Below are positions 1,749 to 19,797 of a stretch of DNA of 20,168 nucleotides, piece by piece. The first letter of the stretch is position 1; each line of letters starts with the position of its first letter. Made by a program: the position numbers and the translations under genes. The notes beneath the pieces are model-generated. The model was not told where the DNA came from. It made no database searches and was given only the letters and a program-made list of their open reading frames with translations. Source of the stretch: a virus. Where the stretch lies: positions 1 through 20,168 of the IMG/VR virus record IMGVR_UViG_3300042898_002067. One strand, 5' to 3'.

Positions 1749-2429
1749 ATGGATAGCGAGCAGACGCGTAAGGGGCTCAGCGCCCCCTTCCCGCCCGAGC
1801 AGATTCGCACCCGCGAGGGCAGAGCAGGGATGAAACTACAATGGGTAGAGGCCCGCCTAGTGGCGCAACGCCTCAACGAAGTGATCGGCGTCGGGGCGTG
1901 GAGCTTCGAGGTCAGCCTCGTGCCAGGGCACGATAACGCCGTGAAGGGGCGACTCAGCCTCCCCGGCGCCGTGTACGAGGATTACGGGTACGAGACCGGG
2001 GGCAGCGGCGAGACCTTGAAAGAGGCGAGCAGCGATGCCCTGCGACGCTGTGCAAGCCTCACGGGCGTAGCGGCGTATTTGTACGCCCACGGCGCAGAGG
2101 CCAACGCAGCTTCGGCGCCTCGACCGTTCAGGCGCCCCGAGGCGACAGAGACGGTGAGCATCCCAGCGCGGGCGAATCCGTCTAGCGATGCCGTTCTCGC
2201 GTGCCCAGACCACGGCGAGCCGTACGTATACCGCGAAGGCGGCATAAGTAAGGCCACCGGAAAGGCGTACGAGCCCTTCTGGACGTGCAAGGGCAAAACC
2301 GCCGACGGCGGCTACTGCCGCAGTAAGCCGCCGCGCGGCTACAACGGCGGCATCAACCAGGCACCCGCACCCGTAGAGGCACCCGCCTTACGGGACAGCG
2401 AGGCCGACCTAAATGACCTACCCTTCTAG
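1749..2429 (+). CDS. Rad52-like single-strand annealing protein with zinc finger and SSB-like tip
   Basis: This 226-residue protein is a probable phage recombinase that anneals complementary single strands during recombination-dependent replication or repair. Residues 20-115 match the Rad52/Rad22 annealing fold as used by phages: WSFEV, then YEDYGYETGGSGETLKEASSDALRRCASL and a final ALY-like AYLY. A linker follows (120-150), then a zinc-finger-like set of C152, H155, C180 and C190. The last residues, DLNDLPF, resemble the acidic DDDIPF tip with which SSB recruits partners. The start at 1749 follows GGAGGAGTC. A copy of the dispersed ATCCGTCTAGCGAT element encodes residues 143-148 in the linker. 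A PD-(D/E)XK nuclease at 4705 is a likely partner. The family call is strong; zinc binding and tip function are inferred. Confidence 0.85.
   Translation: MDSEQTRKGLSAPFPPEQIRTREGRAGMKLQWVEARLVAQRLNEVIGVGAWSFEVSLVPGHDNAVKGRLSLPGAVYEDYGYETGGSGETLKEASSDALRRCASLTGVAAYLYAHGAEANAASAPRPFRRPEATETVSIPARANPSSDAVLACPDHGEPYVYREGGISKATGKAYEPFWTCKGKTADGGYCRSKPPRGYNGGINQAPAPVEAPALRDSEADLNDLPF
2175..2190 (+). repeat. dispersed ATCCGTCTAGCGAT element, copy 1
   Basis: The sequence is AATCCGTCTAGCGATG. It lies inside the Rad52-like gene and is read as Asn-Pro-Ser-Ser-Asp in the linker between the annealing domain and the zinc finger. Confidence 0.8.
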
Positions 2430-2445
2430 GGTAGGAAGCGGCGAA

Positions 2446-2472
2446 GGGGCGGGCAACTGGGTAGCCCGCCCC
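2446..2472 (+). terminator. hairpin after the annealing protein gene
   Basis: A perfect 9-bp inverted repeat (GGGGCGGGC / GCCCGCCCC) with a 9-base loop begins 16 bases after the stop codon. There is no T-run, so it would be a GC-rich terminator without U-tail, or an mRNA 3'-end stabiliser. Confidence 0.5.
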
Positions 2473-2493
2473 AACGCCCCAACAGAGGAGGAG
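2470..2493 (+). repeat. 24-bp leader repeat, copy 2
   Basis: This copy differs by one base from 740-763 and again ends in a GAGGAGGAG ribosome binding site just ahead of an ATG (2496). Its first bases overlap the 3' arm of the hairpin at 2446-2472. Confidence 0.7.
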
Positions 2494-2495
2494 CA

Positions 2496-2681
2496 ATGCA
2501 GACACACCGACCGAATCGAGGGAAACTAAAGACACACGTGCGCCCAGGCAGGCGCGGGGCGTACTACGACGACGGAGTGCCGACGACAGTAGCAGGATGG
2601 GCATGGCTGACCGCGCAGGCGGCAATCGGGCTCGCCGGCGTCTACATCGTCATCGTGCTACTCCTGAGCCTCCCAATCTAG
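2496..2681 (+). CDS. small single-pass membrane protein, 61 aa
   Basis: The ATG at 2496 follows a strong GAGGAGGAGCA site. The first 25 residues are basic (HRPNRGKLKTHVRPGRRG) and the last 30 are hydrophobic (about 33-60, ending VIVLLLSLPI), giving one membrane segment with a positively charged N-terminus likely in the cytoplasm. Size and shape would fit a holin-like or membrane-tethering protein, but no lysis cassette surrounds it, so no function is assigned. Confidence 0.6.
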   Translation: MQTHRPNRGKLKTHVRPGRRGAYYDDGVPTTVAGWAWLTAQAAIGLAGVYIVIVLLLSLPI

Positions 2682-2685
2682 GCGC

Positions 2686-3108
2686 ATGCGGCTCAGCGCG
2701 AGCACCAAAGCGGGAGTAGAGGCGTGGATCGCCGACGTACTACCCCGAATCGGGCTCACGCAGTGGGACATCACCGTAAGTGAAGACGCCGCCGCGGAGG
2801 ATGCGTGGGCAGACATCGAGGCACATAGCATCGACCCGCGCGCAACCATAAGGATCGGCGCGGGCCTAGAAGCGCAGACACCCGAGCGGCAGCGCCTTGT
2901 ACTCACGCACGAGCTTGTCCACCTATTCCTGCACCCGCTTGACCGATACACGGCGAGCATGGAGGCGACGCATGGGAGCGTATGGTACGGCGCGTGGTAC
3001 CCCGGCTACGACGACCACCACGAGCAGGCGACGGAGCGAATCGCACGAGCGATAGCGCCGCACCTCCCGACCCCACGGATCGGCAGTAAGGGCGGCAAGG
3101 GCAAGTAG
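2686..3108 (+). CDS. putative HExxH zinc metallopeptidase (ImmA/IrrE- or SprT-like)
   Basis: The 140-residue product carries LTHELVHLFLH: H75, E76 and H79 form the HExxH zinc site, and E113 in the later helix HEQATERIA is a candidate third ligand. Small phage proteins of this shape are usually annotated as ImmA/IrrE-type or SprT-like peptidases, which in some systems cleave repressors or other regulators. No repressor gene is visible nearby, so the substrate is unknown. The ATG at 2686 lies 4 bases after the previous stop and has no good ribosome binding site of its own, which suggests coupling to the upstream gene. The metallopeptidase call is based on the motif. Confidence 0.7.
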   Translation: MRLSASTKAGVEAWIADVLPRIGLTQWDITVSEDAAAEDAWADIEAHSIDPRATIRIGAGLEAQTPERQRLVLTHELVHLFLHPLDRYTASMEATHGSVWYGAWYPGYDDHHEQATERIARAIAPHLPTPRIGSKGGKGK

Positions 3109-3110
3109 CG

Positions 3111-3293
3111 ATGAAGGTGCAATGGGACGACGAGGAGCCCGAGGAGCACGATAGAGACCGTAAGCGCCGACGGCGCGAGGAGGGCATGCGGATGGATAAG
3201 GCGCTCAAGCGCCAAATGAACGAACTCGAGGAGCGCGAGCGCCAACGCCAACGGGCGAGGGCCGACAAGCGCAGGGCGCAAGAGGAGGAGTAG
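3111..3293 (+). CDS. highly charged coiled-coil-like small protein, 60 aa
   Basis: The frame starts 2 bases after the previous stop. Apart from the first 10 residues it is almost entirely Arg, Lys and Glu with spaced Met, Leu and Gln (for example MDKALKRQMNELEERERQRQ), which predicts one long charged helix or coiled coil. Such sequences can be nucleic-acid-binding or simply low complexity. It is kept as a gene because it fills the space between two genes in a dense operon. The function is not known. Confidence 0.5.
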   Translation: MKVQWDDEEPEEHDRDRKRRRREEGMRMDKALKRQMNELEERERQRQRARADKRRAQEEE

Positions 3294-3300
3294 CCGAGGA

Positions 3301-3350
3301 GGGTGGCGACAATCGCCGCCGCGCTACGCAGGATTGCGGTACCGCCACCC
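3301..3350 (+). promoter_or_regulatory. large hairpin directly upstream of the methyltransferase gene
   Basis: GGGTGGCG at 3301-3308 pairs perfectly with CGCCACCC at 3343-3350, and inside it CAATC (3310-3314) pairs with GATTG (3332-3336). The structure occupies most of the gap between the charged small gene and the ribosome binding site of the methyltransferase (3357-3366), so it could be a terminator, an attenuator or a translational control element. No T-run follows it. Confidence 0.45.
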
Positions 3351-3369
3351 AGGCGGGGAGGAGGAGCAG

Positions 3370-4614
3370 ATGAGACACGCATCATTCTTTAGCGGCGTAG
3401 GAGGCCTAGACATAGGCTTCGAACGCGCAGGCATCAAGACGGTCAGCGTCTGCGAGATTGACCCGTATGCGAGCAGCGTACTCGCGGAGCGATTCCCAAG
3501 CGCCCCTAATCTTGGGAGCATCACGGAGGTAAACGCACATGACATCCCCAACGCCGACATCTGGTCAGGGGGATTCCCCTGCCAAGACCTCAGCGTCGCC
3601 GGAAAGCGCGCAGGATTCGCAGGCAAGCGAAGCAGCCTTGCCTTCACCTTCCTCGACCTTGTGGAGCAGCGCCGACCTCGGTGGATCGTGTTGGAGAACG
3701 TCCTTGGGCTCCTCAGTAGCAATCAGGGCCGCGACTTCGCCCGACTACTCGGGGAGATGGACGGGCTCGGGTATGGCGTGGCGTGGCGAACTTTGGACGC
3801 TCGGTACTTCGGAGTCGCCCAACGACGCCGTAGAGTGTTCATTGTCGGCAGTCTTGGAACCGACCGCGCCGCCGAGGTACTCTTTGAGTGCGAGGGCTGC
3901 GACAGGCATCCTGCGCCGCGCTGGACGCAGAGGCAAGGTGTTGCCAGCGGCACTCCAGACGGCTCTGGAATCGCTGGCACAATCACCAGACGATTCAGTA
4001 AAGGAGTCAATAGCACCATCGACGAGCCCCTCATCGTCAGCGGTCAGGCGGCTCACACCGACAGAGTGCGAGCGGCTAATGGGGTGGCCGGACGGGTGGA
4101 CGATCAGCCAGGCGTGGACACCTTCGGCGCGGAAACGCACCGCGCACTCCAAGCCCGAGACTGGAAGGCGGGAGTAAGCAATCAAGACATCGGCGAGGAT
4201 GGATACCTCGTCGGCTACCAGACACGAGCAGACGTAGCCGAGGCCGCCCACCGCTCCCTTACCGGGGGCGGGTCAGATTCACCTCAGTCAGAGCGTATAT
4301 GGAGTGAAATCGGAACCGCGCCAACCTTAGACACGGGTCGAGCCGTGCCGCAGGTCTTCCGTAAGTCAGCCCGAGCGCAGACCAGTACAGACTCAGAGAC
4401 GTGGGTGGAGGGCGAGGTCGCGAACACGCTCAACAGCTTCGACGTAGGGGACGTACGTACAACGCACGCAGTAGTAGGCGGAGGCACAACAGACGACCCC
4501 ACCTTGCCAGCAGGGCTCGACTCCCACCGCTACCGATGCTGCGGGAATGGCGTAGTAGCCCCCGTTGCCGAGTGGATCGGGCGCAGGATCATAGCCGAGG
4601 AGGGTCGCCTATAA
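3370..4614 (+). CDS. DNA cytosine-5 methyltransferase
   Basis: The product transfers a methyl group from S-adenosylmethionine to C5 of cytosine in DNA. Motifs are in the normal order: FFSGVGGLDIGFERAG (motif I, residues 6-21), GGFPCQDLS with nucleophile C71 (IV), ENV at 109-111 (VI), QRRRR at 151-155 (VIII), a variable region at about 165-380, and RYRCCGNGV near 387-395 (X). The ATG at 3370 follows GGAGGAGGAGC; a TTG 36 bases upstream lies inside the hairpin and is less likely. The usual motif RRLTPxECERLxGxPD is missing from this frame and appears in the overlapping frame at 4046-4102. Methylation would make 5mC, the substrate of the TET/JBP enzyme at 10058. Family is certain; target site and activity are not. 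Confidence 0.92.
   Translation: MRHASFFSGVGGLDIGFERAGIKTVSVCEIDPYASSVLAERFPSAPNLGSITEVNAHDIPNADIWSGGFPCQDLSVAGKRAGFAGKRSSLAFTFLDLVEQRRPRWIVLENVLGLLSSNQGRDFARLLGEMDGLGYGVAWRTLDARYFGVAQRRRRVFIVGSLGTDRAAEVLFECEGCDRHPAPRWTQRQGVASGTPDGSGIAGTITRRFSKGVNSTIDEPLIVSGQAAHTDRVRAANGVAGRVDDQPGVDTFGAETHRALQARDWKAGVSNQDIGEDGYLVGYQTRADVAEAAHRSLTGGGSDSPQSERIWSEIGTAPTLDTGRAVPQVFRKSARAQTSTDSETWVEGEVANTLNSFDVGDVRTTHAVVGGGTTDDPTLPAGLDSHRYRCCGNGVVAPVAEWIGRRIIAEEGRL
3539..4177 (+). CDS. overlapping reading frame inside the methyltransferase, carrying a C5-MTase motif
   Basis: A 212-codon frame lies wholly inside the methyltransferase gene, shifted by +1. It has its own ribosome binding site (GGAGG at 3525-3529, 9 bases before the ATG). 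From memory, its central part (SGMAWRGELWTL, then RYSLSARAATGILRRAGRRG and LPAAL) matches a family of phage hypothetical proteins often annotated beside C5 methyltransferases, a family that may itself be overprinted. Its C-terminal part reads RRLTPTECERLMGWPDGWT (4046-4102), the conserved methyltransferase segment absent from the main frame. It may be a real overprinted gene, a split second subunit, or the remains of a frameshifted methyltransferase 3' half. Confidence 0.45.
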   Translation: MTSPTPTSGQGDSPAKTSASPESAQDSQASEAALPSPSSTLWSSADLGGSCWRTSLGSSVAIRAATSPDYSGRWTGSGMAWRGELWTLGTSESPNDAVECSLSAVLEPTAPPRYSLSARAATGILRRAGRRGKVLPAALQTALESLAQSPDDSVKESIAPSTSPSSSAVRRLTPTECERLMGWPDGWTISQAWTPSARKRTAHSKPETGRRE

Positions 4615-4624
4615 GCGGGGGAGC

Positions 4625-4639
4625 ATCCGTCTAGCGATA
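4625..4639 (+). repeat. dispersed ATCCGTCTAGCGAT element, copy 2
   Basis: The sequence is ATCCGTCTAGCGATA, intergenic, 10 bases after the methyltransferase stop. A run of seven A (4642-4648) follows 3 bases later. Confidence 0.8.
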
Positions 4640-4653
4640 CCAAAAAAAGCAAC

Positions 4654-4686
4654 GGGGGGTGGCGGCTGAATACGCCGCCCCCCACC
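4654..4686 (+). terminator. GC hairpin between methyltransferase and nuclease genes
   Basis: GGCGGC (4661-4666) pairs with GCCGCC (4674-4679) around a 7-base loop, and the stem continues outward through two mismatches with GGG/CCC and GG/CC. No T-run follows on the + strand. Read on the - strand it is followed by a T7 tract 5 bases away, but no - strand gene is seen to need it. It separates the methyltransferase from the ribosome binding site GGAGGTG of the next gene. Confidence 0.45.
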
Positions 4687-4704
4687 ATACGGAGGTGCAG
4701 ACCA

Positions 4705-5667
4705 ATGGCACGAGTACCAATCAGTAAGGCAATCGACCCCAAGCGCACGGGGATAAGTAAGAGCCTCGTGGTCGCCACGAGCCTGTGCGCCCGTAAGGGC
4801 TGGCACCAGGAGCACGTGCGCACCGCCAACGGAGCCCGCCCCCAAGCGGTCATGCCGGAACGCGTGCACTACGGGAGCGCGCTAGACGAGGCGACAATGA
4901 CGCTCATCTACCGCCACTGGGAGCAGCGCCAACCCATCACCGACGAACTAATCATGGAGGCGGTGGAGGAGGGCCTCGGGAGCATCAGCACGAAGCCAGG
5001 GGCGGAGGAACTCGACCCAATCGCAATGGCGGCAGAGTTAGAGGCGGCTATCCGCAGCTTCGCCGTCATCGTGCTCCCGCAAGTCTTAGAGGGCGCAACG
5101 CGCGTCTACTTGCAGGGATGGAACGGAGAGTCGTGGGGCGACGGGCACGGGGGCATAGGCACCCCCGACATCACCGTGTTCTACGGTAAAGAGCGCGCAA
5201 CGGTTTGGGACGTCAAGAGCAGCACACGCCGTAAGCCGCTGGAAGCGCTGTACGGGCCAGAGATGAGCCACTATGCGGCCCTTTACGACGACATCGACCG
5301 CGGCAGAGACGACCACGATGACGAGCGCCTCCCGCGCAACCTCACCGTCGGGTATCTCACGTGGGTAAGGCTAAAGAGCCCCGTATGGCAGGTAATCAGC
5401 GCAACCGTAGACCTCCCGCACCATGCGATGGCATTCGCGCAGCGCGAGTACACGGAGGCGGTGATCGCACACCGCACCCCCGACGCCCTCGCGTACAACA
5501 CGAGCCTGTGCGGCACGTGCGAGTACGCGGAGCGCATCGAGGGGGCGCTACGACCATCACGCAGGATCGGGGACGGGATGGAGCCCTTCCCCGGTTGCGC
5601 CATCGGAATCATCACCCTAGGGGTCAAGCGCATCACAGAGGCGGCAGAGGGGGCCAACAATGAGTAA
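4705..5667 (+). CDS. PD-(D/E)XK nuclease, Cas4/RecB-like, probable Fe-S exonuclease
   Basis: The 320-residue product has the RecB-type nuclease core: GTPDITVFYG with D155, then ATVWDVKSS with D169 and K171, followed by MSHYAALYDD (186-196) at the position of the family QxxxY motif. One early cysteine (C28, SLCARKGW) and three late ones (C269, C272, C298) match the split arrangement that holds a 4Fe-4S cluster in Cas4, AddB and related phage exonucleases. It probably resects double-stranded ends to feed the Rad52-like annealing protein at 1749. The ATG at 4705 follows GGAGGTGCAGACCA. The nuclease fold is well supported; the cluster and polarity are inferred. Confidence 0.85.
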   Translation: MARVPISKAIDPKRTGISKSLVVATSLCARKGWHQEHVRTANGARPQAVMPERVHYGSALDEATMTLIYRHWEQRQPITDELIMEAVEEGLGSISTKPGAEELDPIAMAAELEAAIRSFAVIVLPQVLEGATRVYLQGWNGESWGDGHGGIGTPDITVFYGKERATVWDVKSSTRRKPLEALYGPEMSHYAALYDDIDRGRDDHDDERLPRNLTVGYLTWVRLKSPVWQVISATVDLPHHAMAFAQREYTEAVIAHRTPDALAYNTSLCGTCEYAERIEGALRPSRRIGDGMEPFPGCAIGIITLGVKRITEAAEGANNE

Positions 5668-6037
5668 GCCGACCCAGGCGCAACGCATCTTACAGCGCAT
5701 GCGAGAGCACCCCGAGGGGATCACCGCGATGGAGGCGCTCGACGAGATCGGGTGCTTCCGACTAGCGGCACGCATCTACGACCTCAGGGCGGAGGGGCAT
5801 CAAATCATCGAGGAGACCCAGAGCACACCGACGGGAAAGCATGTAGCACGGTACCGACTCATCGGCATCGCACCGACACCGACAGCGCCCAATAAGGTCA
5901 GAGCATGGGTGTGCGCCCAGTGCGGCACCGACGCGTCATACATCGGGGCGAGCGCCATAGGGGATAAGTACGGCCTCGGTAAGTGCCACACGCACGGCAC
6001 CACCGCAGTCATGACCCTGTACAGGGACGCAGTATGA
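5660..6037 (+). CDS. winged-helix-like DNA-binding protein with C-terminal zinc finger
   Basis: The start overlaps the end of the nuclease gene by 8 bases, pointing to coupled translation. Residues 5-70 (AQRILQRMREHPEGITAMEAL, then CFRLAARIYDLRAEGHQI and a RYRL strand) match the small winged-helix domain seen in many phage replication and regulatory proteins. A second part has C85 and C88 (CAQC), then C109 with H110 and H112, consistent with a zinc site. It is likely a DNA-binding accessory factor of the replication or recombination region. The specific role is unknown. Confidence 0.7.
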   Translation: MSKPTQAQRILQRMREHPEGITAMEALDEIGCFRLAARIYDLRAEGHQIIEETQSTPTGKHVARYRLIGIAPTPTAPNKVRAWVCAQCGTDASYIGASAIGDKYGLGKCHTHGTTAVMTLYRDAV

Positions 6038-6489: not shown

Positions 6490-6491
6490 GC

Positions 6492-6975: not shown

Positions 6976-7449
6976 GTGAGCATCCGTCTAGCGATGGCGG
7001 CAGCGGCAATCATGCTCGCGGCGGCATGCGCACCGCAGCCGCACCTACACGCCACGCAGCCCACCGCAACCCAGGGGCAGCGCGGTCTGGGCAGCCCGAT
7101 CGAGGTAGCGCAGGTGAAGGGCGTCGCATCGTGGTACGACGCCACCAAAAACAACGCATGGTACACCCGCCAGACGAAGTGGGGCGCACCCGTCGCCTAT
7201 TACGCAGCGGCGGGGCCCGCCGCGAGGAGACTCATCGGCGACAAGAATCCATACCACGAGCACTACCCCGTCTACGTCACCAACAAAAAGACCGGGCGCA
7301 CCATCAAGGTCATCATCGTGGACTGGTGCCAGTGCTCGAAGGGAAAGCGCGGAGAGAAAGCGATAGACCTCAGCCCCGCGGCCTTCGAGGCGCTCGGGCT
7401 ACCACTTGGGCACGGAGTGGTGAGAGTCATCATCACCCTGCTACCATAG
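6976..7449 (+). CDS. RlpA-like (double-psi beta-barrel) putative lipoprotein
   Basis: The 157-residue product starts with a hydrophobic signal (IRLAMAAAAIMLAAAC) whose C18 could be a lipidated cysteine, although the lipobox AAAC is weak. Residues 48-157 match a double-psi beta-barrel of the RlpA type: GVASWYDA, TIKVIIVDWCQC (D116, C118, C120) and KAIDLSPAAFEALGLPLGHGVVRV. Relatives cleave or bind denuded peptidoglycan, so roles in lysis, entry or envelope change are possible. The GTG at 6976 lies 4 bases after the rusA stop with only a weak ribosome binding site; the ATG at 6994 is an alternative. A copy of the dispersed element covers codons 3-7, so it also shapes the signal peptide. Confidence 0.75.
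   Translation: MSIRLAMAAAAIMLAAACAPQPHLHATQPTATQGQRGLGSPIEVAQVKGVASWYDATKNNAWYTRQTKWGAPVAYYAAAGPAARRLIGDKNPYHEHYPVYVTNKKTGRTIKVIIVDWCQCSKGKRGEKAIDLSPAAFEALGLPLGHGVVRVIITLLP
6982..6997 (+). repeat. dispersed ATCCGTCTAGCGAT element, copy 3
   Basis: The sequence is ATCCGTCTAGCGATGG. It spans the start region of the RlpA-like gene and is read as Ile-Arg-Leu-Ala-Met, a different frame from the other coding copies. Confidence 0.8.
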
Positions 7450-8254: not shown

Positions 8255-8785
8255 ATGGCGCGACACAAGGCGCTCACGCGGCCATGCTTGGGATGCGGGA
8301 GGCTCACGCCCAACACCCGTTGCACGCCCTGCTACAGGGCCAGAGAGCGGGCACGAGGGGCATCGGTCTACTCCACGTACGAGTGGATCGCGTACAGCCG
8401 GGCAGTCAGAGCCGCCACGCCATACTGCGAGCGGTGCGGGTCTAGGGATAAACGGCTCAGCGTTGATCACATCACCCCGCTCAGCCAGGGCGGCGCCCTT
8501 TGTCCACCCCGAGCGGGCGTACGCGTCCTTTGTTGGCAGTGCCACAATACGCGCGACCATTGGGACGGGCCCGAGGGGCGGATGGCAAATGATGGGGGGG
8601 GCACCCCCGCCCATACCCCCCACAAACGTGCAATGATGAGCGCGGGAGACACGGAGCAGAATGGGGGGGAGGGGCAAAAACTCGTTCTCAGCCCACCCCT
8701 CGCAGCGCCGGGCATCCCCGTACGGAATAATGCGAGTTTAGAGAAAACGGCAATACCCCCCACGAAAACGGAGGAGGAGCAATGA
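8255..8785 (+). CDS. HNH endonuclease-like protein with zinc ribbon and low-complexity tail
   Basis: The first 30 residues contain CLGC and CTPC (C11, C14, C23, C26), a zinc ribbon. The HNH core follows: CERC (58-61), VDHITPLSQGG with D71 and H72, and VLCWQCHNTRDHW with C93, C96, H97 and N98. Phage HNH proteins near terminase genes are often needed for genome cutting during packaging. Residues 107-176 are unlike HNH proteins: Gly, Pro and Thr rich, encoded by DNA with a G8 run (8594-8601) and a G7 run near 8661. The start at 8255 lies 3 bases after the previous stop; the end overlaps the ParB-like gene (ATGA). The tail could be disordered or a frameshift product. Confidence 0.8.
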   Translation: MARHKALTRPCLGCGRLTPNTRCTPCYRARERARGASVYSTYEWIAYSRAVRAATPYCERCGSRDKRLSVDHITPLSQGGALCPPRAGVRVLCWQCHNTRDHWDGPEGRMANDGGGTPAHTPHKRAMMSAGDTEQNGGEGQKLVLSPPLAAPGIPVRNNASLEKTAIPPTKTEEEQ

Positions 8786-9441
8786 AGAGCGAAATGACCG
8801 CCACGAGGGTCAGGCTAGACACCATCAGGGCCGACGAAGATAACGCCCGAGTGCACGACGCCCGACAGATCGACGCAATCGCCCGAAGCTTGACCGCCTT
8901 CGGTCAGCGCCGACCAATCGTACTCGACGATCAGGGCACCGTAATCGCCGGCAACGGCACCTACGCCGCAGCGAAGGCGCTCGGGTGGACGGAGATCGAC
9001 GCCGTAGTCGCGCCCTTCAAGAGCGCCGACGAGCGCCGCGCATACGCCATCGCCGACAACCGCACGGGCACCTTAGCGGAGTGGAGCCACGAGGCCCTCA
9101 TCACCGCACTACGCGGCGCAGGGGAGGAGACAATCGCCGCGACGGGATTCACACGCGCGGAGTACGAGGAGATCAGGGACGCGCTCCTCGCCCAGGCGAA
9201 TACGCCCGGCGAGTCAGAGTCGCACCAGTCAGGCTATAAGCGCGCCCAGAGCGCCAACGAAGGGTACGACGCCTACATGGCATCAACGGAGCGCAACATC
9301 GTCTTGGAGTACCCGATGCCCCGCTACCTCGCCATGATCGACGCGTGGGCCGCCTACCGCAGTATCCACGGGCTAGAGGGCAATAACGAAGCGCTCCTAC
9401 ACCTACTTGCCACCGCCACCGGCACGGAGGCGCCACGATGA
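8782..9441 (+). CDS. ParB/Srx-fold phage protein, first of a tandem pair
   Basis: Residues 8-105 match the phage type of ParB N-terminal domain: DEDNARVHDARQIDAIARSL, TAFGQRRPIVL, VIAGNGTYAAAKALGW (the ParB box region) and RRAYAIADNRTGTLAEW. This fold is used in chromosome-partition CTPases but also in nucleases, methyltransferase accessories and sulfiredoxin-like proteins, so phage members cannot be assumed to partition DNA. The C-terminal part (STERNIVLEYPMPRYLAMIDAWAAYR) is shared with the next protein. The ATG at 8782 follows GGAGGAGGAGCA and overlaps the HNH stop. The two tandem copies end in the TET/JBP gene, suggesting a joint task on DNA. Confidence 0.85.
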   Translation: MKSEMTATRVRLDTIRADEDNARVHDARQIDAIARSLTAFGQRRPIVLDDQGTVIAGNGTYAAAKALGWTEIDAVVAPFKSADERRAYAIADNRTGTLAEWSHEALITALRGAGEETIAATGFTRAEYEEIRDALLAQANTPGESESHQSGYKRAQSANEGYDAYMASTERNIVLEYPMPRYLAMIDAWAAYRSIHGLEGNNEALLHLLATATGTEAPR

Positions 9442-10061
9442 GCGCGCCCATCGAGCTTCGCACCGTAGTAATCGCCAACCTGCGGCCCGACCCCGACAAC
9501 GCCCGCGTGCACTCCGAGCGCAACATCAACGCCATCGCCAAAAGCCTCAGCACCTTCGGGCAGCGTAAGCCCATCGTGATCGCAGGCGACACCATCGTCG
9601 CGGGCAACGGCACCGTAGAGGCGGCACGCCGACTAGGATGGACAGACATCATCGCAGTGGACTACCCCGCCAACAGGATCACGGAGGCACGGGCATACGC
9701 CATCGCCGATAACCGCACCGGGGAACTAAGCCTGTGGGACAATCGCCGCCTGAAGGCGCAACTAGACACAATCGGCGCAGGGCTCGCCAACGTCGCAGGG
9801 TACACGTGGGAGGAGATCGACGACCTCGTCAGCCCATCCGTGAACATCCCAACCCTCACCGTCACCGACGGAGACCGGGCAATCGCCGACTTCTACGCCA
9901 TGCGCGCCTCACGCAGCTTCCTATTCCGCATGCCCGTAGCGCAGTACGAGTGGGCAATCGAGCGCCTGAAAGAGACGCGCACCAGGTTAGGAGTAGAATC
10001 GAACGCAGAGGCCGTAGAGCGCCTTATACTCAACGCAATCAACACGGAGGAGGCACGATGA
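9438..10061 (+). CDS. ParB/Srx-fold phage protein, second of a tandem pair
   Basis: This 207-residue protein parallels its upstream neighbour along its length: PDPDNARVHSERNINAIAKSL, STFGQRKPIVI, IVAGNGTVEAARRLGW and ARAYAIADNRTGELSLW, then a C-terminal SRSFLFRMPVAQYEWAIERL module. It most likely arose by tandem duplication followed by divergence. Start and stop both overlap neighbours in ATGA form (9438 and 10058), so three genes are locked in one translational unit ending with the dioxygenase. It may give DNA binding or nicking specificity to that enzyme or to packaging. This is inference from order only. Confidence 0.85.
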   Translation: MSAPIELRTVVIANLRPDPDNARVHSERNINAIAKSLSTFGQRKPIVIAGDTIVAGNGTVEAARRLGWTDIIAVDYPANRITEARAYAIADNRTGELSLWDNRRLKAQLDTIGAGLANVAGYTWEEIDDLVSPSVNIPTLTVTDGDRAIADFYAMRASRSFLFRMPVAQYEWAIERLKETRTRLGVESNAEAVERLILNAINTEEAR

Positions 10062-10921
10062 CGCTACCAGTAATCGAGGTCAGCAGACTCATCACGGGAA
10101 AGGACGCGACCGCCCTCGTAGGCGAGACCGTACCCGACTTCGAGAGCACCGTAAACGACGAGGGCATCTACGTAGACGCCGACACCGGGGAGATCGTGCT
10201 CGTGTACGCGCCGCTCAAGAGCGGCACTGAAGACCTACGCGCCGCAGTGCTCAATACGCCAATGGGCAGCGTCAAGCGGGCATCAGGGATCGACCAGGAG
10301 TCGCGCAGCTTCGGCATGGCGCCCCGTAAGGTCATGCAGGGCCGCGACGCGTGCCGCCCAGCGAGCCTTGCCTACGAGCGCCCGAGCGAGCACGCCTTCC
10401 TCGCCCGACTCGCCCTCGACTTGGGCGAGACCCTCCGCGAGATCAGCCCAGAGAAGTACCAAGAGAATATCGACGCCCTAGCCGAGATCGACAAGGACTG
10501 GAGGATCACCGAGGGCGCCCTATGGACATCAGGCAACATCAACCGCAGCGCAACGCTCCCCTACCACCGAGACGGCTTCAACTTCGACTCGTGGAGCGCC
10601 ATGCCCGTGGTCCGACGCGGCATGAGAGGCGGATACCTGAACGTACCCGAGTACGGCCTCACCGTAGGATGCCGAGACGGATGGGTGGTCTTCTTCAACG
10701 GCTACCGCATCGTGCACGGCGTCACGCCAATGGCGAAGAGCACCGACGACGGGTACCGCTTCTCCGTGGTCTACTACGCCCTCAGGGGCATGAAGGACTG
10801 CTTCACCTACGCCGTAGAGACGGCGAAGGGGGCGAAGCGCCGAACGCAGCGCGAGGAGGAGCGCGCAGGCGCAACTACGCCATGGGGGCACACGGCACAC
10901 CCAACGGAGCCCGGCGCGTAG
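10058..10921 (+). CDS. TET/JBP-family 2-oxoglutarate Fe(II) dioxygenase (5-methylcytosine hydroxylase candidate)
   Basis: The 287-residue product has the double-stranded beta-helix signature of phage TET/JBP enzymes. LPYHRDGFNF gives the first Fe ligands (H170, D172), GGYLNVPEYG follows, and FFNGYRIVHGVTPM supplies the distal ligand H220, with R234 in GYRFSVVYY as likely 2-oxoglutarate binder. The N-terminal part (residues 70-165) has the family pattern with SFGMAPRK and ALWTSGNINRSATLPY. TET enzymes oxidise 5-methylcytosine to 5-hydroxymethylcytosine; JBP enzymes act on thymine. The methyltransferase at 3370 makes 5mC the likelier substrate. The start at 10058 overlaps the previous stop (ATGA) after GGAGGAGGCACG. 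No glycosyltransferase is seen in the window. Fold confident; substrate inferred. Confidence 0.85.
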   Translation: MTLPVIEVSRLITGKDATALVGETVPDFESTVNDEGIYVDADTGEIVLVYAPLKSGTEDLRAAVLNTPMGSVKRASGIDQESRSFGMAPRKVMQGRDACRPASLAYERPSEHAFLARLALDLGETLREISPEKYQENIDALAEIDKDWRITEGALWTSGNINRSATLPYHRDGFNFDSWSAMPVVRRGMRGGYLNVPEYGLTVGCRDGWVVFFNGYRIVHGVTPMAKSTDDGYRFSVVYYALRGMKDCFTYAVETAKGAKRRTQREEERAGATTPWGHTAHPTEPGA

Positions 10922-10922
10922 C

Positions 10923-10939
10923 AATCCGTCTAGCGATGG
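10923..10939 (+). repeat. dispersed ATCCGTCTAGCGAT element, copy 4
   Basis: The sequence is AATCCGTCTAGCGATGG, beginning one base after the TET/JBP stop and ahead of the terminase ribosome binding site. A run of six A (10953-10958) follows 15 bases after the core. Confidence 0.8.
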
Positions 10940-10960
10940 CAGAGGAGGAGCGAAAAAACA

Positions 10961-13011: not shown

Positions 13012-14274
13012 ATGGGCGTTATCGACCGCATCTTCGGTAGGCAGGAGCAGCGCGCAATCGGCATCGACCGGTTCTTTGACGGCCCACCGGGGCAGTACTC
13101 GCCCGTAGAGATCAACCAGGATCGCGCCACCCAGATCAGCGCCGTATATGCGGCAATCCGCCTCATCAGCGACACCGTCGGGGGGCTCCCGCTCGACGCC
13201 TTCCAGAAGACCAATGGACTCCGCCAACCGCTACGCCCCAAGCCGTCATGGATCGAGAACCCAAGCCCCGATAAGAGCGTCACGCGAGTAGAACTCGTCA
13301 GCCAGATCGTTGCGAGCTTGCTCACCGATGGCAACGCCTTCATCGCCGTAACGCGCGACAGCGCCGGCGCGCCCGTCTTCCTCGACGTACTCGCGCCACG
13401 CGCAATCACCGTCACACGCGTAAACGGCCTACCAATCTACGAGGTGCTCACGCCATCAGGCGCGAAGGCAACGTACACGCAGGATGAGATCATCCACATC
13501 CCGCTATTCCGCTTGCCAGGCTTCCACCGCGGGCTCAGCCCAATCGACCACCTGAAGGCGACATACGGCGTCGCAATCGCCGCGGAGGAATACGGTGGAC
13601 GCTTCTTCGGTCAGAACGCCACCCCGAGCGGGATCGTAAACGTGCCAGGCGACCTCACGGAGGAGCAGGCGGGGAGTATCCGCCGCAACTTCGCGCGGCA
13701 CCACGAGGGCCTCGGCAACGCGCACCGCATCGCCGTACTCACGGGCGGCGCCAAGTTTGACGCCATCAGCATCACGCCAGAGCAGGCGCAATTCCTAGAA
13801 CTACGCGGCTTCCAAGTGGAGGAGATCGCCCGAATCTTCCGCGTGCCCGCGCACCTACTCGGCATCCTCAAGCCAGGCGCCGTGTCGTACGCGTCAGTGG
13901 AACTTCAAGCGCAGGAGTACGTCACCTTCACCATCAAGCCAATCCTTGACCGGCTGGAGACGGGGCTCGCCCGGCTGATCCCCGGCGGCGACACGTATCT
14001 CCGATTCAACGTAGAGGGCCTCCTCCGCGCCGACACTAAGAGTCGCTACGACGCGCTCGCCAGCGCCATCAACACGGGGTGGATCAGCGTAGACGAGGCG
14101 CGCAGGATTGAAGACCTACCGCCACTCCCAGACGGGCAGGGCGCCATCTACCGCATGCAGCTTGGATTCGCACCCGCGGGCACCGCCGACACCCAGGGCC
14201 GCGCCAACATCTACGAGACGCTCATCAAGTCAGGCATCACGCCCGACGAGGCGGCGAGGATCAGCGGCCTGTGA
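13012..14274 (+). CDS. HK97-type portal protein
   Basis: The portal is the dodecameric ring at the capsid vertex through which DNA enters and leaves. The 420-residue product starts MGVIDRIFGR, typical of the family, and shows SAVYAAIRLISDTVGGLPLDAF, SLLTDGNAFIAV, EIIHIPLFR, GLSPIDHLK, GRFFGQNATPSGIV, ITPEQAQFLE and IARIFRVPAHLLGIL. I chose the ATG at 13012 because GAGGAGG lies 5 bases upstream; the in-frame ATG at 12952 has a poor site and lies in a hairpin. The stop overlaps the GTG start of the protease fusion (GTGA). Confidence 0.95.
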   Translation: MGVIDRIFGRQEQRAIGIDRFFDGPPGQYSPVEINQDRATQISAVYAAIRLISDTVGGLPLDAFQKTNGLRQPLRPKPSWIENPSPDKSVTRVELVSQIVASLLTDGNAFIAVTRDSAGAPVFLDVLAPRAITVTRVNGLPIYEVLTPSGAKATYTQDEIIHIPLFRLPGFHRGLSPIDHLKATYGVAIAAEEYGGRFFGQNATPSGIVNVPGDLTEEQAGSIRRNFARHHEGLGNAHRIAVLTGGAKFDAISITPEQAQFLELRGFQVEEIARIFRVPAHLLGILKPGAVSYASVELQAQEYVTFTIKPILDRLETGLARLIPGGDTYLRFNVEGLLRADTKSRYDALASAINTGWISVDEARRIEDLPPLPDGQGAIYRMQLGFAPAGTADTQGRANIYETLIKSGITPDEAARISGL

Positions 14275-15851
14275 GCATGATCATCGTAGACGTGGACGGC
14301 ACGCTTACCACCTCAGGCGACACGCCCAACCAGCCAGTAATCGACGCGCTCAACAGCGCCGTCATGAGCGGCGACTACCAGATCATCGTCGTCAGCGCGC
14401 GCAGCATCGACCGATTGGAGGAGACCCGAGCATGGCTACAAGAGCACGGGGTCGCGGGCGTAGGGGAGGTGCATCTCAACGACTTCGAGGGCACGCCCTT
14501 CGCAACCGGCTTCGCCTTCAAGGAGTACAAGTACGGCCTGCTCGCAGAGCAGTACGGCACGGAGGGGTCGCACGCCGTAGACGACGACCCAGCGGTGCGC
14601 GAGATGGCAACCGCCTTGGGCATCCACGGGATGAGCCCAGAGGAGACCGTCGCAATGTTCGGAGGGGCGTACGACGACGAGGAGGATGACGACGAGGAGA
14701 ATCCGTCTAACGATGCCGAAAACGCATCCGAATCGGAATCACGCGCAGACCTCAGCGTGCCAGACTTCATGCGCCAAAACGCCATCAGGGGCCTTGACCT
14801 GCTTGAATACAAGGGCGACGGGCTACGCCCCAACACGATCACCGAGGCACGAGACCTAGCCAGGGGTCGCGCAACGGAGGATAAATGGCGTAGGATGAGG
14901 GCGTGGATCGCACGCCACCTCAGCGACCTAGAGGGCGTCAGCCCAATCGCGGAGGGCGAGCGCCCCACCGCCGGGCAAGTCGCACACCTGCTATGGGGCA
15001 GCGGAGATACAACCGATAAGGCGAACCGGGCGTATGATTACGCCGAAAGGGTGGTGATGGCTATGGACAACGAGCAAAAGCGCACCGACACTGAGCCAAC
15101 TGAGACGCCAATCGAAGTACCCGCCGAGACGACCGCCGAGGCGCCCCCCGAGGCGCCCGCGGAGTACCACGCCGTCAAAGGTGAGGTGGAGACCCGCGCA
15201 TACACGGGCGAGCTTCGCGTGGACGCGGAGGCCCGCACGATTGTCGGCTACGCCGCGCTATTCAACTCCGACTCAAGCCCAATGCCGTTCATCGAGCGGC
15301 TGGCACCAGGCGCCTTCACGCGCAGCCTCGGGCAGGTCGCAGCTTCGGGTAAGGTAGTCAAACTGCTCCACGGGCACGATGAGAGTCAGATGGTCGCCGC
15401 AACGCCTACGAGCCTCAGCCTCAGCCAGGACGAGCGCGGGCTGCAAGTCACCGCCGACATCATCAAGAGCCCAATCGGCGATCACCTCATCGCACTAGCG
15501 CAGCGCGACCCCCAAGCAGTCGCATGGTCATTCGGATTCCGCGTCATGGACGAGGAGTGGGACGGAAATAAGCGCACGATCAACGAGGCCGCCCTCCACG
15601 AGGTCAGCCTACTCACCGGGCACACGCCCGCCTACCCCGGCACCATCGGACTCGCGTCAGTACGCGGGCTTGCGAAGCGCCGCGGAATCGAGGCGGAGGG
15701 GCTATGGAAAGCGGTCAGCACATGGCTCCGCGGCGACACCGTTGCAGAGGAGGATGCATCTGCTATCATCCGTGCGTTCGAGGGTAGCGTCACAGTCCCG
15801 ACGTCAGTCAGGGCCAAGATGCTCGCCTTGAAGGAGCGCATCGGAGAATAA
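14271..15851 (+). CDS. HAD domain - helical domain - HK97 prohead protease fusion
   Basis: The 526-residue protein joins three parts. Residues 1-125 are a HAD-type hydrolase: IIVDVDGT (D7, D9), VVSAR (40-44), HAVDDDP (101-107). An acidic linker (134-160) encodes one dispersed element. Residues 163-265 (VPDFMRQNAIRGLDLL, then TITEARDLARGRATEDKWRRM, ARHL and HLLWGSG) form a helical domain I recall from other phage head proteins. After a Pro/Glu linker (270-300), residues 305-465 are the prohead protease: VGYAALFN, ERLAPGAFTRSL, LLHGHD (H367), VAWSFGF (S420), LHEVSLLTGHTPAYPGT. It would process the scaffold or capsid N-terminus. The GTG at 14271 is preferred over ATG 14277 because of ribosome binding site spacing. 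The HAD fusion is unusual. Confidence 0.88.
   Translation: MSMIIVDVDGTLTTSGDTPNQPVIDALNSAVMSGDYQIIVVSARSIDRLEETRAWLQEHGVAGVGEVHLNDFEGTPFATGFAFKEYKYGLLAEQYGTEGSHAVDDDPAVREMATALGIHGMSPEETVAMFGGAYDDEEDDDEENPSNDAENASESESRADLSVPDFMRQNAIRGLDLLEYKGDGLRPNTITEARDLARGRATEDKWRRMRAWIARHLSDLEGVSPIAEGERPTAGQVAHLLWGSGDTTDKANRAYDYAERVVMAMDNEQKRTDTEPTETPIEVPAETTAEAPPEAPAEYHAVKGEVETRAYTGELRVDAEARTIVGYAALFNSDSSPMPFIERLAPGAFTRSLGQVAASGKVVKLLHGHDESQMVAATPTSLSLSQDERGLQVTADIIKSPIGDHLIALAQRDPQAVAWSFGFRVMDEEWDGNKRTINEAALHEVSLLTGHTPAYPGTIGLASVRGLAKRRGIEAEGLWKAVSTWLRGDTVAEEDASAIIRAFEGSVTVPTSVRAKMLALKERIGE
14700..14715 (+). repeat. dispersed ATCCGTCTAGCGAT element, copy 5
   Basis: The sequence is AATCCGTCTAACGATG, one mismatch from the core. 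It is read as Asn-Pro-Ser-Asn-Asp in the acidic linker after the HAD domain of the protease fusion. Confidence 0.75.
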
Positions 15852-15948
15852 CCGCAGGCCCGATCTCACACGCCTCGACCCCCACGAGGGTCACGCGCAG
15901 GGGGAACACCCGAGCGGAATAGGCAGTAGTAGAGAAAGGGGAAACATC

Positions 15949-17106: not shown

Positions 17107-17133
17107 CCCAGTAGGGTAAGAGGAGCAGCGGAG

Positions 17134-17159
17134 GGGGGGCGGGAGGAATCCCGCCCCCC
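17134..17159 (+). terminator. strong hairpin after the major capsid gene
   Basis: A perfect 11-bp stem (GGGGGGCGGGA / TCCCGCCCCCC) is closed by a GGAA tetraloop. It begins 27 bases after the capsid stop. No T-run follows (AACCGC), so it is a GC-type terminator or 3'-end stabiliser that could let capsid mRNA accumulate above downstream genes. Confidence 0.65.
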
Positions 17160-17181
17160 AACCGCATAGAGAGGAGGAGCC

Positions 17182-17430
17182 ATGACGAAACTACAGACCG
17201 TACGCATGACCATCCACGTCACCGGCACGCGCAACGGGGTAGAGTGGCCCTATAAGGGCGGCACGATTGAACTACCGTACGGAGAGGCCGTGCAGCTTGC
17301 CGCCGCAGGATACGCGAGCCTGGTAGGCGAGCCCCGCGAGGAGCATCCGTCTAGCGATGGCGCACCCGAGGCCATAGAGACCGCTACAATCACCACCGAG
17401 CGTAAGACCCGTAAGACCAAGAGGGGGTAA
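17182..17430 (+). CDS. small head-region protein, 82 aa
   Basis: The ATG follows GAGAGGAGGAGCC. The first 50 residues are beta-rich (TVRMTIHVTGTRNGVEWPYKG, IELPYGEAVQLAAAGYASLVG) and look like a small folded domain. The rest is a polar, disordered tail that ends in basic residues (RKTRKTKRG). A copy of the dispersed element encodes residues 55-60 (HPSSDG) exactly at the border between domain and tail. Its position right after the capsid suggests a head accessory or completion role, but no family is recognised. Confidence 0.7.
   Translation: MTKLQTVRMTIHVTGTRNGVEWPYKGGTIELPYGEAVQLAAAGYASLVGEPREEHPSSDGAPEAIETATITTERKTRKTKRG
17345..17360 (+). repeat. dispersed ATCCGTCTAGCGAT element, copy 6
   Basis: The sequence is ATCCGTCTAGCGATGG, inside the small head-region gene. 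It is read as His-Pro-Ser-Ser-Asp between the folded part and the tail. Confidence 0.8.
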
Positions 17431-17433
17431 ACG

Positions 17434-17697
17434 ATGTCCGTCAGCAGCGCGAAGGTACTAGCCGGCACCACGCCAACCTTGCTCGTCACCGCCGACACCG
17501 ACGGATGCCGCGTGCTCATCCACAAGGATCAGCAGCACACCATCTACCTCGGAGGCGCCGACGTCACGACCGCCAACGGCTTCCTCTTTGACCATGACGG
17601 CACCGTAGACATCAGCCTCCCCGCCAACGCCAAAATCTACGCCGTAGTAGCCACGGGCACCGAGCCCTGCTACATCCTCAAGATCGGAAACGCCTAA
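17434..17697 (+). CDS. small beta-rich head protein, 87 aa (possible decoration protein)
   Basis: The start is 3 bases after the previous stop. The sequence is almost entirely beta-like (AKVLAGTTPTLLVTADTDGCRVLIH, IYLGG, GFLFDHDGTVDISLPANAKIYAVVA), with two cysteines. Compact beta proteins encoded next to HK97-type capsids are often decoration or cement proteins that bind the shell. That role is inferred from place and size only. The stop overlaps the next start (TAATG). Confidence 0.65.
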   Translation: MSVSSAKVLAGTTPTLLVTADTDGCRVLIHKDQQHTIYLGGADVTTANGFLFDHDGTVDISLPANAKIYAVVATGTEPCYILKIGNA

Positions 17698-18305
17698 TGA
17701 CCGACTACGCCACCCGCGCAGAGGCGAAAGCAATCCTCGGAATCGCAAGTAGCGATACAACCGAAGATACGCTCGTCGATAGCCTCATCACCGCAGCTTC
17801 GAGCGCCATCGACCAGTACTGCGACCGCCCGGCGGGCTTCGGGCCGCAGGGTAGCCAGACGCGCTACTACGCCGCCGACGACTACTACCGCATTGACGTA
17901 GACGACCTACTCACCGTCACGAGCTTGACGACCGACGACGGCATTGACGGCACCTACAACCAGACATGGGTGGAGGGCACCTACAACCTTATGCCGTACA
18001 ACGCGGCCCTCGCAGGGCGCCCGTACACGAGCATCGAGTCCTCAGACACGAGCATCCTCAACTTCCCTAAGGGCTCAACGAAGGGCGTCAAGATCATCGG
18101 CACGTGGGGCTGGAGCGCCATCCCCGCAGCGGTAAAGCAGGCGTGCCTATTAGAGGTCGCTAAACTCTACGCCTCCCGAAACGCACCCTTCGGCGTGATC
18201 GGCACCGGCGACGCCGGGGGCGTCACCCGCATGAGCACGAGGATGCACCCAGCAGCAGTAGCCCTCCTTGACCAATACCGCAACCGAAAGGGCGCAGCTT
18301 CCTAA
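17697..18305 (+). CDS. head-tail connector (HK97 gp6-like)
   Basis: The 202-residue product begins MTDYATRAEAKAILGI and has SLITAASSAIDQYCDRP, TRYYAADDYYRIDVDDLLTVTSL and, near the C-terminus, IPAAVKQACLLEVAKLYASRNAPFG. These are hallmarks of gp6-type adaptor proteins, which bind under the portal and start the neck. It overlaps its neighbours in TAATG form on both sides, so it is translated within a coupled string of head-completion genes. Confidence 0.8.
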   Translation: MTDYATRAEAKAILGIASSDTTEDTLVDSLITAASSAIDQYCDRPAGFGPQGSQTRYYAADDYYRIDVDDLLTVTSLTTDDGIDGTYNQTWVEGTYNLMPYNAALAGRPYTSIESSDTSILNFPKGSTKGVKIIGTWGWSAIPAAVKQACLLEVAKLYASRNAPFGVIGTGDAGGVTRMSTRMHPAAVALLDQYRNRKGAAS

Positions 18306-18748
18306 TGCCAATGAGCGACCTCGCCATCCACCAGGCACTCGCCAACCGATTGACGGCCCTCACCGCACCCACCGGGCGAGCGGGAGGGGGAATCCGCGCA
18401 GCATACGCAGTACCGCCCGACACCCTCGGCGCGTTGCCCGTAGCCGTGGTCATGCCCGGCACCGACAGCATCGAGTACGGGGCCGCGAGCAGGCGCACCG
18501 TCTTGACCTGCACCGTCACGATCTACCTCAGCCTCCAGCCGGATAGCGAGCGCCGATACACCGACCTCCTCATCTGGCGCACGTGGCTCAGAAACGCGTA
18601 TGATGGTACCGTACTGCTCGGCGGAGAGGCCGCCCAGGCGAGCGTGACGAGCACGAGCATCGGCAACGCAACGTGGGGGGATCAGACGTACATCACTATC
18701 GCCGCAGACGTAGATGTGGTAAACCTAGAAGGCAAGTCCTTCGCATAG
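18305..18748 (+). CDS. tail terminator / neck protein-like
   Basis: The 147-residue product has an N-terminal helix (MSDLAIHQALANRLTAL), a hydrophobic ALPVAVVMPG strand, TVLTCTVTIYLSL and a C-terminal TYITIAADVDVVNLEG strand. This mixed alpha/beta layout and its place between the connector and the tail tube gene match tail terminator or head-closure proteins. No diagnostic motif is seen, so the exact neck role is uncertain. The start overlaps the connector stop (TAATG). Confidence 0.6.
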   Translation: MPMSDLAIHQALANRLTALTAPTGRAGGGIRAAYAVPPDTLGALPVAVVMPGTDSIEYGAASRRTVLTCTVTIYLSLQPDSERRYTDLLIWRTWLRNAYDGTVLLGGEAAQASVTSTSIGNATWGDQTYITIAADVDVVNLEGKSFA

Positions 18749-18766
18749 TTAGAGGGGAGAATACCG

Positions 18767-19777
18767 ATGCCAAGCCCAACATTCGGCGCCAAGAGCTTCA
18801 CGAAGGTCATCGCTAAGGCGGAGGCGACCTACGGCACTACGCCATCACTCGTAGGCACCGTCGGGCAGATCATCATGGTGGACGCCCTCGGCGCCATCGA
18901 CCTCGGCATCGAACTCAACAGCGGCGACGACAGGACAGTAGGAGTACGCACGCAGGTGCTCGCCAACCGACCCGTCATCACCTCCCGAGCGCCAGTAATC
19001 ACGTGGGGCGAGACCGACGCAGACATGCGCGCCCTCCCAATCGCCCTTGACTCACTCGCAACGATCACCGCCACCGGCGCGGGCCCGTACGTATGGACGT
19101 GGAGCCCTAGCCAGACCGCAGTAGACACCTACAAGGGCTACAGCCTGCTCCTCACCGACGGCGTGCAGCAGTACGCCGCTAAGGGGTGCGTGCCAACCGA
19201 AATCACTTTCAGCGGCGAGGGCACGGGCACGCTCCAGTACGGCGTGACGTGGGCGGCAATCGACATCGCCACCAACGCCGACGCCAACACCGCAGTACCG
19301 TCAGCACCGGCGCTGGTACCGTCCCGCCTATTCAAGTTGTACACCGACACCGCCTTCCCAGACGGATCAGGCGACACCGAGTACGACCATGTCATGTCCT
19401 TCACGGCGACGATCGAGCCGGGCCTTACGATGATTAGCGCCCTCGACGCGAGCCTCGTAGCCGCCACCGCGGCATACACGGGGCCACTCAACGCCACAAT
19501 GGAACTGACCGTCGCCTCCAACGCCGCGGCAATCGCCAACGGCGCGTGGGGCATCGACGAGATCGGTGAGCAGCGATTCCTGCGACTCACGGCTACGACG
19601 AGCGCCGGCTACGGACTCGAGATTCGAGGGTCATGGATCATCGAGACCATCACCCCGCTCGGCGCCGACCAGGACGGCCTAGTCGTCAATACCGTGGGGC
19701 TCCGCCTCGCCTACGACCAGACCTCGGGAAAGAGCATCGAGATCGCCGCAACCAGCCCGCTGGCAGCGCGCCCGTAA
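18767..19777 (+). CDS. major tail (tail tube) protein
   Basis: The 336-residue protein begins GAKSFTKVIAKAEATYGTTPSLVG, the typical start of siphovirus tail tube subunits, and continues with repeated beta strands (LPIALDSLATITATGAGPYVWTW, TEITFSGEGTGTLQYGVTW, VMSFTATIEPGLTMI, RFLRLTATTSAGYGLEIRGSWII). It would stack as hexamers to build the tail tube. It is followed by a copy of the dispersed element and then the tail assembly chaperone, the standard order. Start after GAGGGGAGAATACC. Confidence 0.82.
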   Translation: MPSPTFGAKSFTKVIAKAEATYGTTPSLVGTVGQIIMVDALGAIDLGIELNSGDDRTVGVRTQVLANRPVITSRAPVITWGETDADMRALPIALDSLATITATGAGPYVWTWSPSQTAVDTYKGYSLLLTDGVQQYAAKGCVPTEITFSGEGTGTLQYGVTWAAIDIATNADANTAVPSAPALVPSRLFKLYTDTAFPDGSGDTEYDHVMSFTATIEPGLTMISALDASLVAATAAYTGPLNATMELTVASNAAAIANGAWGIDEIGEQRFLRLTATTSAGYGLEIRGSWIIETITPLGADQDGLVVNTVGLRLAYDQTSGKSIEIAATSPLAARP

Positions 19778-19780
19778 TGC

Positions 19781-19797
19781 AATCCGTCTAGCGATGG
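19781..19797 (+). repeat. dispersed ATCCGTCTAGCGAT element, copy 7
   Basis: The sequence is AATCCGTCTAGCGATGG, intergenic, 3 bases after the tail tube stop. A run of eight A (19809-19816) follows 14 bases after the core, just before the chaperone ribosome binding site. Confidence 0.8.

What the first reader, a model, noticed from the sequence alone, without database searches (positions are those of the whole stretch)
2175..19797. Seven same-strand copies of a 14-17 bp element at gene and domain borders
ATCCGTCTAGCGAT occurs at 2175, 4625, 6982, 10923, 14700 (one mismatch), 17345 and 19781, always on the + strand. Chance cannot plausibly give seven copies of a 14-mer in 20 kb. Three copies are intergenic and one covers a gene start; these follow rusA, the methyltransferase, the TET/JBP gene and the tail tube gene. 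Three are inside genes, in linkers: after the Rad52 domain, after the HAD domain, and at the border of a folded domain and its tail. They are read in two different frames, so selection is on nucleic acid, not protein. Spacing is roughly 2.4-3.9 kb. Possible roles are a repressor stoperator-like site, a packaging or replication protein site, or a recombination joint that lets modules and domains be exchanged.
Basis: partly seen in the sequence, partly recalled or inferred. Interest (0 to 1): 0.82.

Follow-up and report, generated by a model that had tools for sequence, protein, structure and literature searches.

The report
Evenly spaced one-strand phage DNA site
A small bacterial virus carries the same short DNA signal about every three kilobases round its whole genome, always on the same strand and often followed by a run of A's, which marks it as a signal read by some protein; what it does is untested, but it resembles known strand-specific nick sites and transcription-stopping sites.

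Summary
Observation confirmed: ATCCGTCTAGCGAT occurs seven times in the window (one copy with a mismatch), all on the + strand. Seven relatives from IMG/VR, one an apparently complete 29,202-bp circle (here R1), extend it. R1 has nine copies on the gene strand, none on the other, spaced 2.44-3.97 kb all the way round (P about 1e-5 for such evenness). The site is [AG]TCCGTCTA[AG]CGA[TG], usually followed by GSC. Every run of six or more A's in these contigs starts 17-29 nt downstream of a copy, in two classes about one helical turn apart; one further run sits at a contig edge where the copy is cut off. One close relative has lost both copies it should have, and its A-tract. Copies survive where flanks diverge, and evident recombination breakpoints miss them, so they are not module joints. 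The site is absent from 396 actinobacterial genomes and from TerL relatives at 59% identity or less. Best reading: a polar recognition array for a lineage-specific DNA protein. Mode of action is open: nick sites (about 0.3), stoperator-like sites (0.25), promoters (0.15), replication/packaging/topology (0.2).

The parts
2176..2192 (+). motif copy 1, inside the Rad52/Erf-type SSAP gene (1749-2429), linker after the folded domain; ATCCGTCTAGCGATGCC
4625..4641 (+). motif copy 2, intergenic, 10 nt after the C5-MTase stop; lies inside a 1.33-kb insert (3357-4690) absent from relative R1
4642..4648 (+). A7 tract, 17 nt after start of copy 2
6982..6998 (+). motif copy 3, just after RusA, within the first codons of the DPBB/RlpA-like gene (GTG 6976)
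10924..10940 (+). motif copy 4, 2 nt after the Tet_JBP stop, upstream of TerS
10953..10958 (+). A6 tract, 29 nt after start of copy 4
14701..14717 (+). motif copy 5 (G10A), inside HAD-prohead protease gene (14271-15851), in the variable linker
17345..17361 (+). motif copy 6, inside the 82-aa gene (17182-17430) after the capsid gene
19782..19798 (+). motif copy 7, 4 nt after the tail-tube stop
19809..19816 (+). A8 tract, 27 nt after start of copy 7

Best explanation
Shown: this phage lineage keeps a 12-17 bp asymmetric DNA site, [AG]TCCGTCTA[AG]CGA[TG] plus usually GSC, on one strand only, at 2.1-4.0 kb intervals over the whole genome, often with an A6-A8 tract one or two helical turns downstream. 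Inferred: the site is recognised as double- or single-stranded DNA by a phage-lineage protein, in a direction-dependent way, and the A-tract helps by bending or easy opening. My leading mode of action is site-specific nicking of the + strand, as in phages tf, phiKMV/phikF77 and T5 (about 0.3 of the total). A stoperator-like elongation block is next (0.25). The confidence given is for the class (polar DNA-level recognition array for a lineage-specific protein), not for nicking itself; the rivals below divide up that class, except the last two.
For: 28 copies of the 12-bp core on one strand and none on the other in five contigs. Even spacing in circular R1: CV 0.18; P(min gap) 1.2e-5, P(CV) 1e-5. 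Core 95% identical between window and R1 against 70% upstream and 83-87% downstream; kept in the unalignable part of R1/L054. All 13 A>=6 runs with a motif in range start 17-29 nt after one; a 14th, in L030, sits at the contig edge where the copy is cut off; no T>=6 runs at all. L197, 87% identical, lost both copies it should have and the A-tract. Not an evident host site: 0 of 396 actinobacterial genomes. DNA rather than RNA: copies lie both in and between genes, and no conserved fold appears. Towards nicking: near-invariance, strand exclusivity, mixed coding/border placement, G/A tolerance at one internal base and no integrase found, as in the tf/LUZ24 group (PMC3517423); an HNH endonuclease is present.
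Against: No binding or nick data. No cognate protein identified. tf nick sites are shorter (9 bp), uneven (CV 0.93) and not reported with an A-tract. All genes lie on the same strand as the motif, so 'one strand' cannot be told from 'along transcription'. The sample is one lineage, and orthologous copies are not independent.
Confidence: 0.72

Rival explanations
1. Stoperator-like sites: a repressor binds the asymmetric site and halts RNA polymerase moving through the single rightward transcription unit.
For: Length, asymmetry, orientation with transcription and dispersal match cluster A stoperators (PMC9283540, PMC6550527). In Trixie the structural-arm sites lie before terminase and after the capsid, tail and tape-measure genes; here before TerS, after the tail tube, one gene after the tape measure, and inside the gene after the capsid gene.
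Against: No integrase and no recognised repressor found in R1; about half the copies are inside genes; copies are nearly invariant and evenly spaced whereas Trixie is uneven (CV 0.88).
Confidence: 0.25
2. Promoters or activator sites of a phage transcription programme, one every 3 kb.
For: Even coverage of a one-direction genome; few sigma-70-like promoters elsewhere; several intergenic copies sit just upstream of ribosome-binding sites with an A-rich leader.
Against: No RNA polymerase or sigma factor found; no second element at fixed spacing; A-tract spacing varies by ten; one copy lies after its gene's likely GTG start; L197 lost two neighbouring copies.
Confidence: 0.15
3. Replication, packaging or topology sites: lagging-strand initiation, polar translocation signals, or gyrase/HU-like bend sites spaced along the circle.
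For: Even spacing round the circle, independence from coding, A-tract at helical phase.
Against: No known phage system of this layout found in the papers searched; no dedicated protein identified.
Confidence: 0.2
4. Recombination joints that let modules and domains be exchanged.
For: Copies lie at gene or domain borders; the MTase insert ends near a copy.
Against: Evident breakpoints are not at the motif; even spacing; copies conserved amid divergent flanks.
Confidence: 0.03
5. An RNA hairpin (AUCCGUCUARCGAU) read on the transcript, such as an antitermination signal.
For: Two of three common variants keep possible pairs (U-A/U-G, A-U/G-U), seen by eye in the copies.
Against: The core stem is three pairs (-0.5 kcal/mol) and no conserved fold forms in context; coding copies would be covered by ribosomes.
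Confidence: 0.04

Closest known systems
Localized single-strand interruption (nick) sites of Pseudomonas phage tf / LUZ24 group, phiKMV-like phages and T5
   Same: All copies on one strand, 8-14 per genome in the tf/LUZ24 group, near-invariant, tolerate one G/A change, in genes and at gene borders, positions similar in relatives (PMC3517423).
   Different: Sites 9 bp in tf; uneven spacing; no A-tract noted; nicks were shown experimentally there, nothing is shown here.
Stoperators of cluster A mycobacteriophages (L5, Trixie, Bxb1)
   Same: 13-bp asymmetric, dispersed, oriented with transcription, actinophage.
   Different: Need an immunity repressor, mostly in short intergenic gaps, more variable, uneven; none of the lysogeny genes found here.
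17-bp repeats of cluster O mycobacteriophages (Corndog)
   Same: Dispersed throughout, one third in genes, function unknown, no integrase (PMC4351075).
   Different: Dyad-symmetric, more than 30 copies, denser to one end; no strand polarity.
Start-associated sequences of cluster K mycobacteriophages
   Same: 13-bp asymmetric, mostly one orientation (PMC3203893).
   Different: Tied to start codons as RBS-like elements; here copies are also inside genes.

Membership tests
Phage localized nick (sci) sites | Sites on one strand only | tested here: met
   28 + / 0 - in five contigs
Phage localized nick (sci) sites | Ligatable single-strand breaks at the site in virion DNA | not testable with these tools
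   needs native DNA
Phage localized nick (sci) sites | Same recognition sequence as tf, phiKMV or T5 | tested here: not met
   tf consensus TACT/RTGMC differs, as does the T5 consensus quoted there; phiKMV not compared in sequence. Known nick systems differ from each other in sequence, so this does not exclude a nick site.
Cluster A stoperators | Short asymmetric site oriented with transcription | tested here: met
Cluster A stoperators | Repressor and lysogeny genes in the genome | tested here: inconclusive
   no integrase or repressor recognised in R1 by Pfam/PHROG/inspection; a winged-helix HTH_39 protein exists; several small proteins have no family
Cluster A stoperators | L5-clade sequence GGTGGMTGTCAAG | tested here: not met
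   ATCCGTCTAGCGAT differs
Single-subunit RNA polymerase promoters (T7-like) | Phage-encoded RNA polymerase | tested here: not met
   no such gene among R1 ORFs; R1 taken as complete from its 127-bp end overlap
Cluster K start-associated sequences | Within a few nt of start codons | tested here: not met
   three of seven window copies are well inside genes

The most novel reading that the evidence does not exclude
Spacing itself is selected: the phage needs a polar protein-DNA site with a bendable or meltable A-tract at least every 4 kb and not closer than about 2 kb, a genome-wide 'ruler' for nicking, packaging, replication or transcription that no phage system known to me has; an insert that would open a 4.8-kb gap brought its own site.
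Probability: 0.35. Interest if true: 0.82.

Novelty: new variant of a known kind. Interest (0 to 1): 0.62.

Why it matters
Short dispersed repeats are known in several phages, but their functions, including nick sites known since the 1960s, are mostly unexplained. Here a small genome with about ten near-identical, evenly spaced, one-strand sites, a clear accessory A-tract, and a close relative that lost both copies it should have gives a compact system in which purpose could be tested by mapping breaks, RNA starts and protein binding.

Tried and rejected
Chance and codon usage: synonymous shuffles of R1 leave only its three non-coding exact copies. RNA hairpin: no common fold; no Rfam or tRNA match. 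Recombination joint: breakpoints do not coincide. Host site: 0 of 396 actinobacterial genomes; the true host is unknown. ParB-parS: the site is not palindromic and the ParB-like protein scanned matches only ParB_N, below cut-off. Alternative motif in L197: its variant ATCCGCCTAGCGGT occurs elsewhere only as single unrelated copies, so loss is likelier than replacement, on a 4.6-kb contig. Similar arrays in TerL relatives at 59% identity or less and in phiPsal1: none. Structure prediction of the HTH_39 protein from a single sequence was too poor to use (pLDDT 41). First family scans failed on wrong frames; L5 and Bxb1 records were not held, so Trixie was used.

Full report
OBSERVATION. Dinucleotide shuffles give 0.10 matches to the 17-mer at up to 3 mismatches, against 7. 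In weight-matrix terms there is no intermediate class: copies score 28.6-32.3 and the next hit 4.6. Synonymous codon shuffling of relative R1 leaves only its three non-coding exact copies.

RELATIVES. An exact scan of viral contigs gave 108 stretches, nearly all unrelated single hits; the exceptions are one lineage. R1 (IMGVR_UViG_3300042559_002565) has a 127-bp exact end overlap, so I take it as a 29,202-bp circle. Partial members are R2 (3300042295_001369), L054, L115, L041, L030, L118 and, without the motif, L197. All R1 gene calls (my own script) are on the motif strand. The closest named phages by TerL are Pontimonas phage phiPsal1 (45%) and phiC31-type Streptomyces phages, so an actinobacterial host is likely but not shown. 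No repeat of this kind is seen in TerL relatives at 59% identity or less or in phiPsal1.

ANATOMY. R1 has nine copies on +, none on -; over the window and the four other contigs with a match the 12-bp core occurs 28 times on one strand and never on the other. Across 24 listed copies, positions 2-9 and 11-13 never vary; position 1 is A (G once), 10 is G or A, 14 is T (G twice), 15 mostly G, 16 C or G, 17 mostly C. Gaps in R1 are 3488, 3941, 3790, 2645, 2443, 3973, 2568, 2738 and 3616; for nine random points on the circle P(smallest gap at least this) is 1.2e-5 and P(CV this low) 1e-5. In L054 the smallest gap is 2081. These positions are largely shared between relatives, so this is one observation, not several. 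The window's extra copy at 4625 lies in a 1.33-kb insert with the C5-MTase gene that R1 lacks; without it the gap would be 4.8 kb.

A-TRACT. In this 64% GC genome, runs of six or more A's occur only downstream of the motif. The window and the seven relatives that carry the motif hold 14 such runs: 13 start 17, 18, 27, 28 or 29 nt after a motif start. The fourteenth, in L030, lies 11 nt from the contig edge; its expected motif would be off the end, so it is consistent but not a test. No T>=6 run exists. The 13 are orthologous copies at five distinct loci (4625, 10924, HAD linker, tail tube, R1 20803). The two offset classes differ by about 10 bp, one helical turn; with five loci that phasing is suggestive only. 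Other copies, most of them in genes, lack the tract, so it is an accessory.

CONSERVATION AND LOSS. Window and R1 are 95% identical over the 17 positions at six shared copies, against 70% in the 45 nt upstream and 87/83% downstream. The HAD linker copy sits where window and L054 cannot be aligned from 14699 to 14741, and the R1 23371 copy sits in a region of about 55% identity, yet both are kept. L197, 87% identical to the window over 4.6 kb, has CCCGCGCTAACGAG and ATCCGCCTAGCGGT where two copies should be, and its tract is CAAATAGC. Site and tract thus decayed together at the one locus where both are expected.

NUCLEIC ACID, AND PROBABLY DNA. Copies lie in intergenic gaps and in genes alike. 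Internal ones share a frame giving N/H-P-S-S-D, suited to linkers; one alternative frame is closed by TAG, so this sharing is not strong evidence of protein selection. TCT is 9 of 490 Ser codons in R1, and motif copies supply four of them. No fold is shared between copies, which argues against an RNA element.

NOT MODULE JOINTS. R2 and R1 become 99.8% identical from R2 position 2387 on, while the first motif is at 3225; divergence boundaries between R1 and L054 also miss the motif; the MTase insert has none at its left edge.

NOT AN EVIDENT HOST SITE. The 14-mer TCCGTCTARCGATG is absent from 396 actinobacterial genomes. The true host is unknown, so a host reader in an unsampled genus is not excluded.

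WHAT IT MAY DO. The genome shows SSAP, RusA, a replication-initiation-like protein, a winged-helix HTH_39 protein, an HNH endonuclease, two ParB_N-like proteins, a Tet_JBP oxygenase and usual head-tail genes; no RNA polymerase, integrase or repressor was recognised, though many small proteins match nothing. Phage tf has 14 experimentally mapped nicks, all on one strand, in genes and at gene borders, with one-base variants and similar site positions in relatives (PMC3517423). That is the best overall anatomical match, apart from length, evenness (tf CV 0.93) and A-tract. Cluster A stoperators match in asymmetry, size and orientation, and Trixie's structural-arm sites flank comparable genes, but the lysogeny genes they serve are not seen. 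Promoters would explain coverage, and one weak sigma-70-like candidate lies in the 195-bp gap before the first gene, but no polymerase or sigma is encoded. I cannot separate strand from transcription direction because every gene points one way.

VERDICT. Real, selected, lineage-specific and unexplained; a polar DNA recognition array. Nicking is the leading guess at about 0.3, close to stoperator-like action at 0.25.

Noticed in passing
R1 (L116/L224) 921, 2068, 6479, 10825, 16665, 26235: A second same-strand 11-mer, TCGAGCTTCGC, six exact copies on + and none on -, all in genes; synonymous shuffles give 0.16 on average, at most 3. Not conserved in the window (one exact copy, 9451). Found by scanning many k-mers, so the shuffle figure overstates it.
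   Followed up: partly
3357-4690: 1.33-kb insert with a C5-cytosine MTase gene, absent from R1, that carries its own motif copy and A-tract.
   Followed up: partly
14271-15851: Prohead protease fused to an N-terminal HAD domain with a weak (below cut-off) match to the PNKP phosphatase domain; the linker between them is hypervariable and bears the motif.
   Followed up: no
8782-10921: Two tandem ParB_N-like proteins followed by a Tet_JBP oxygenase, which PHROGs lists as a queuine tRNA-ribosyltransferase family (E 2e-80), probably a naming error.
   Followed up: no
R1 26975-27169, just before window position 1: 195-bp gap with a GC-rich inverted repeat and, in R2, TTTACA-N16-CATAAT; possible early promoter or genome end.
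   Followed up: partly
5660-6037: Winged-helix HTH_39 protein with a conserved C-terminal CxxC...C..H segment, a candidate two-domain DNA binder; structure prediction failed.
   Followed up: partly
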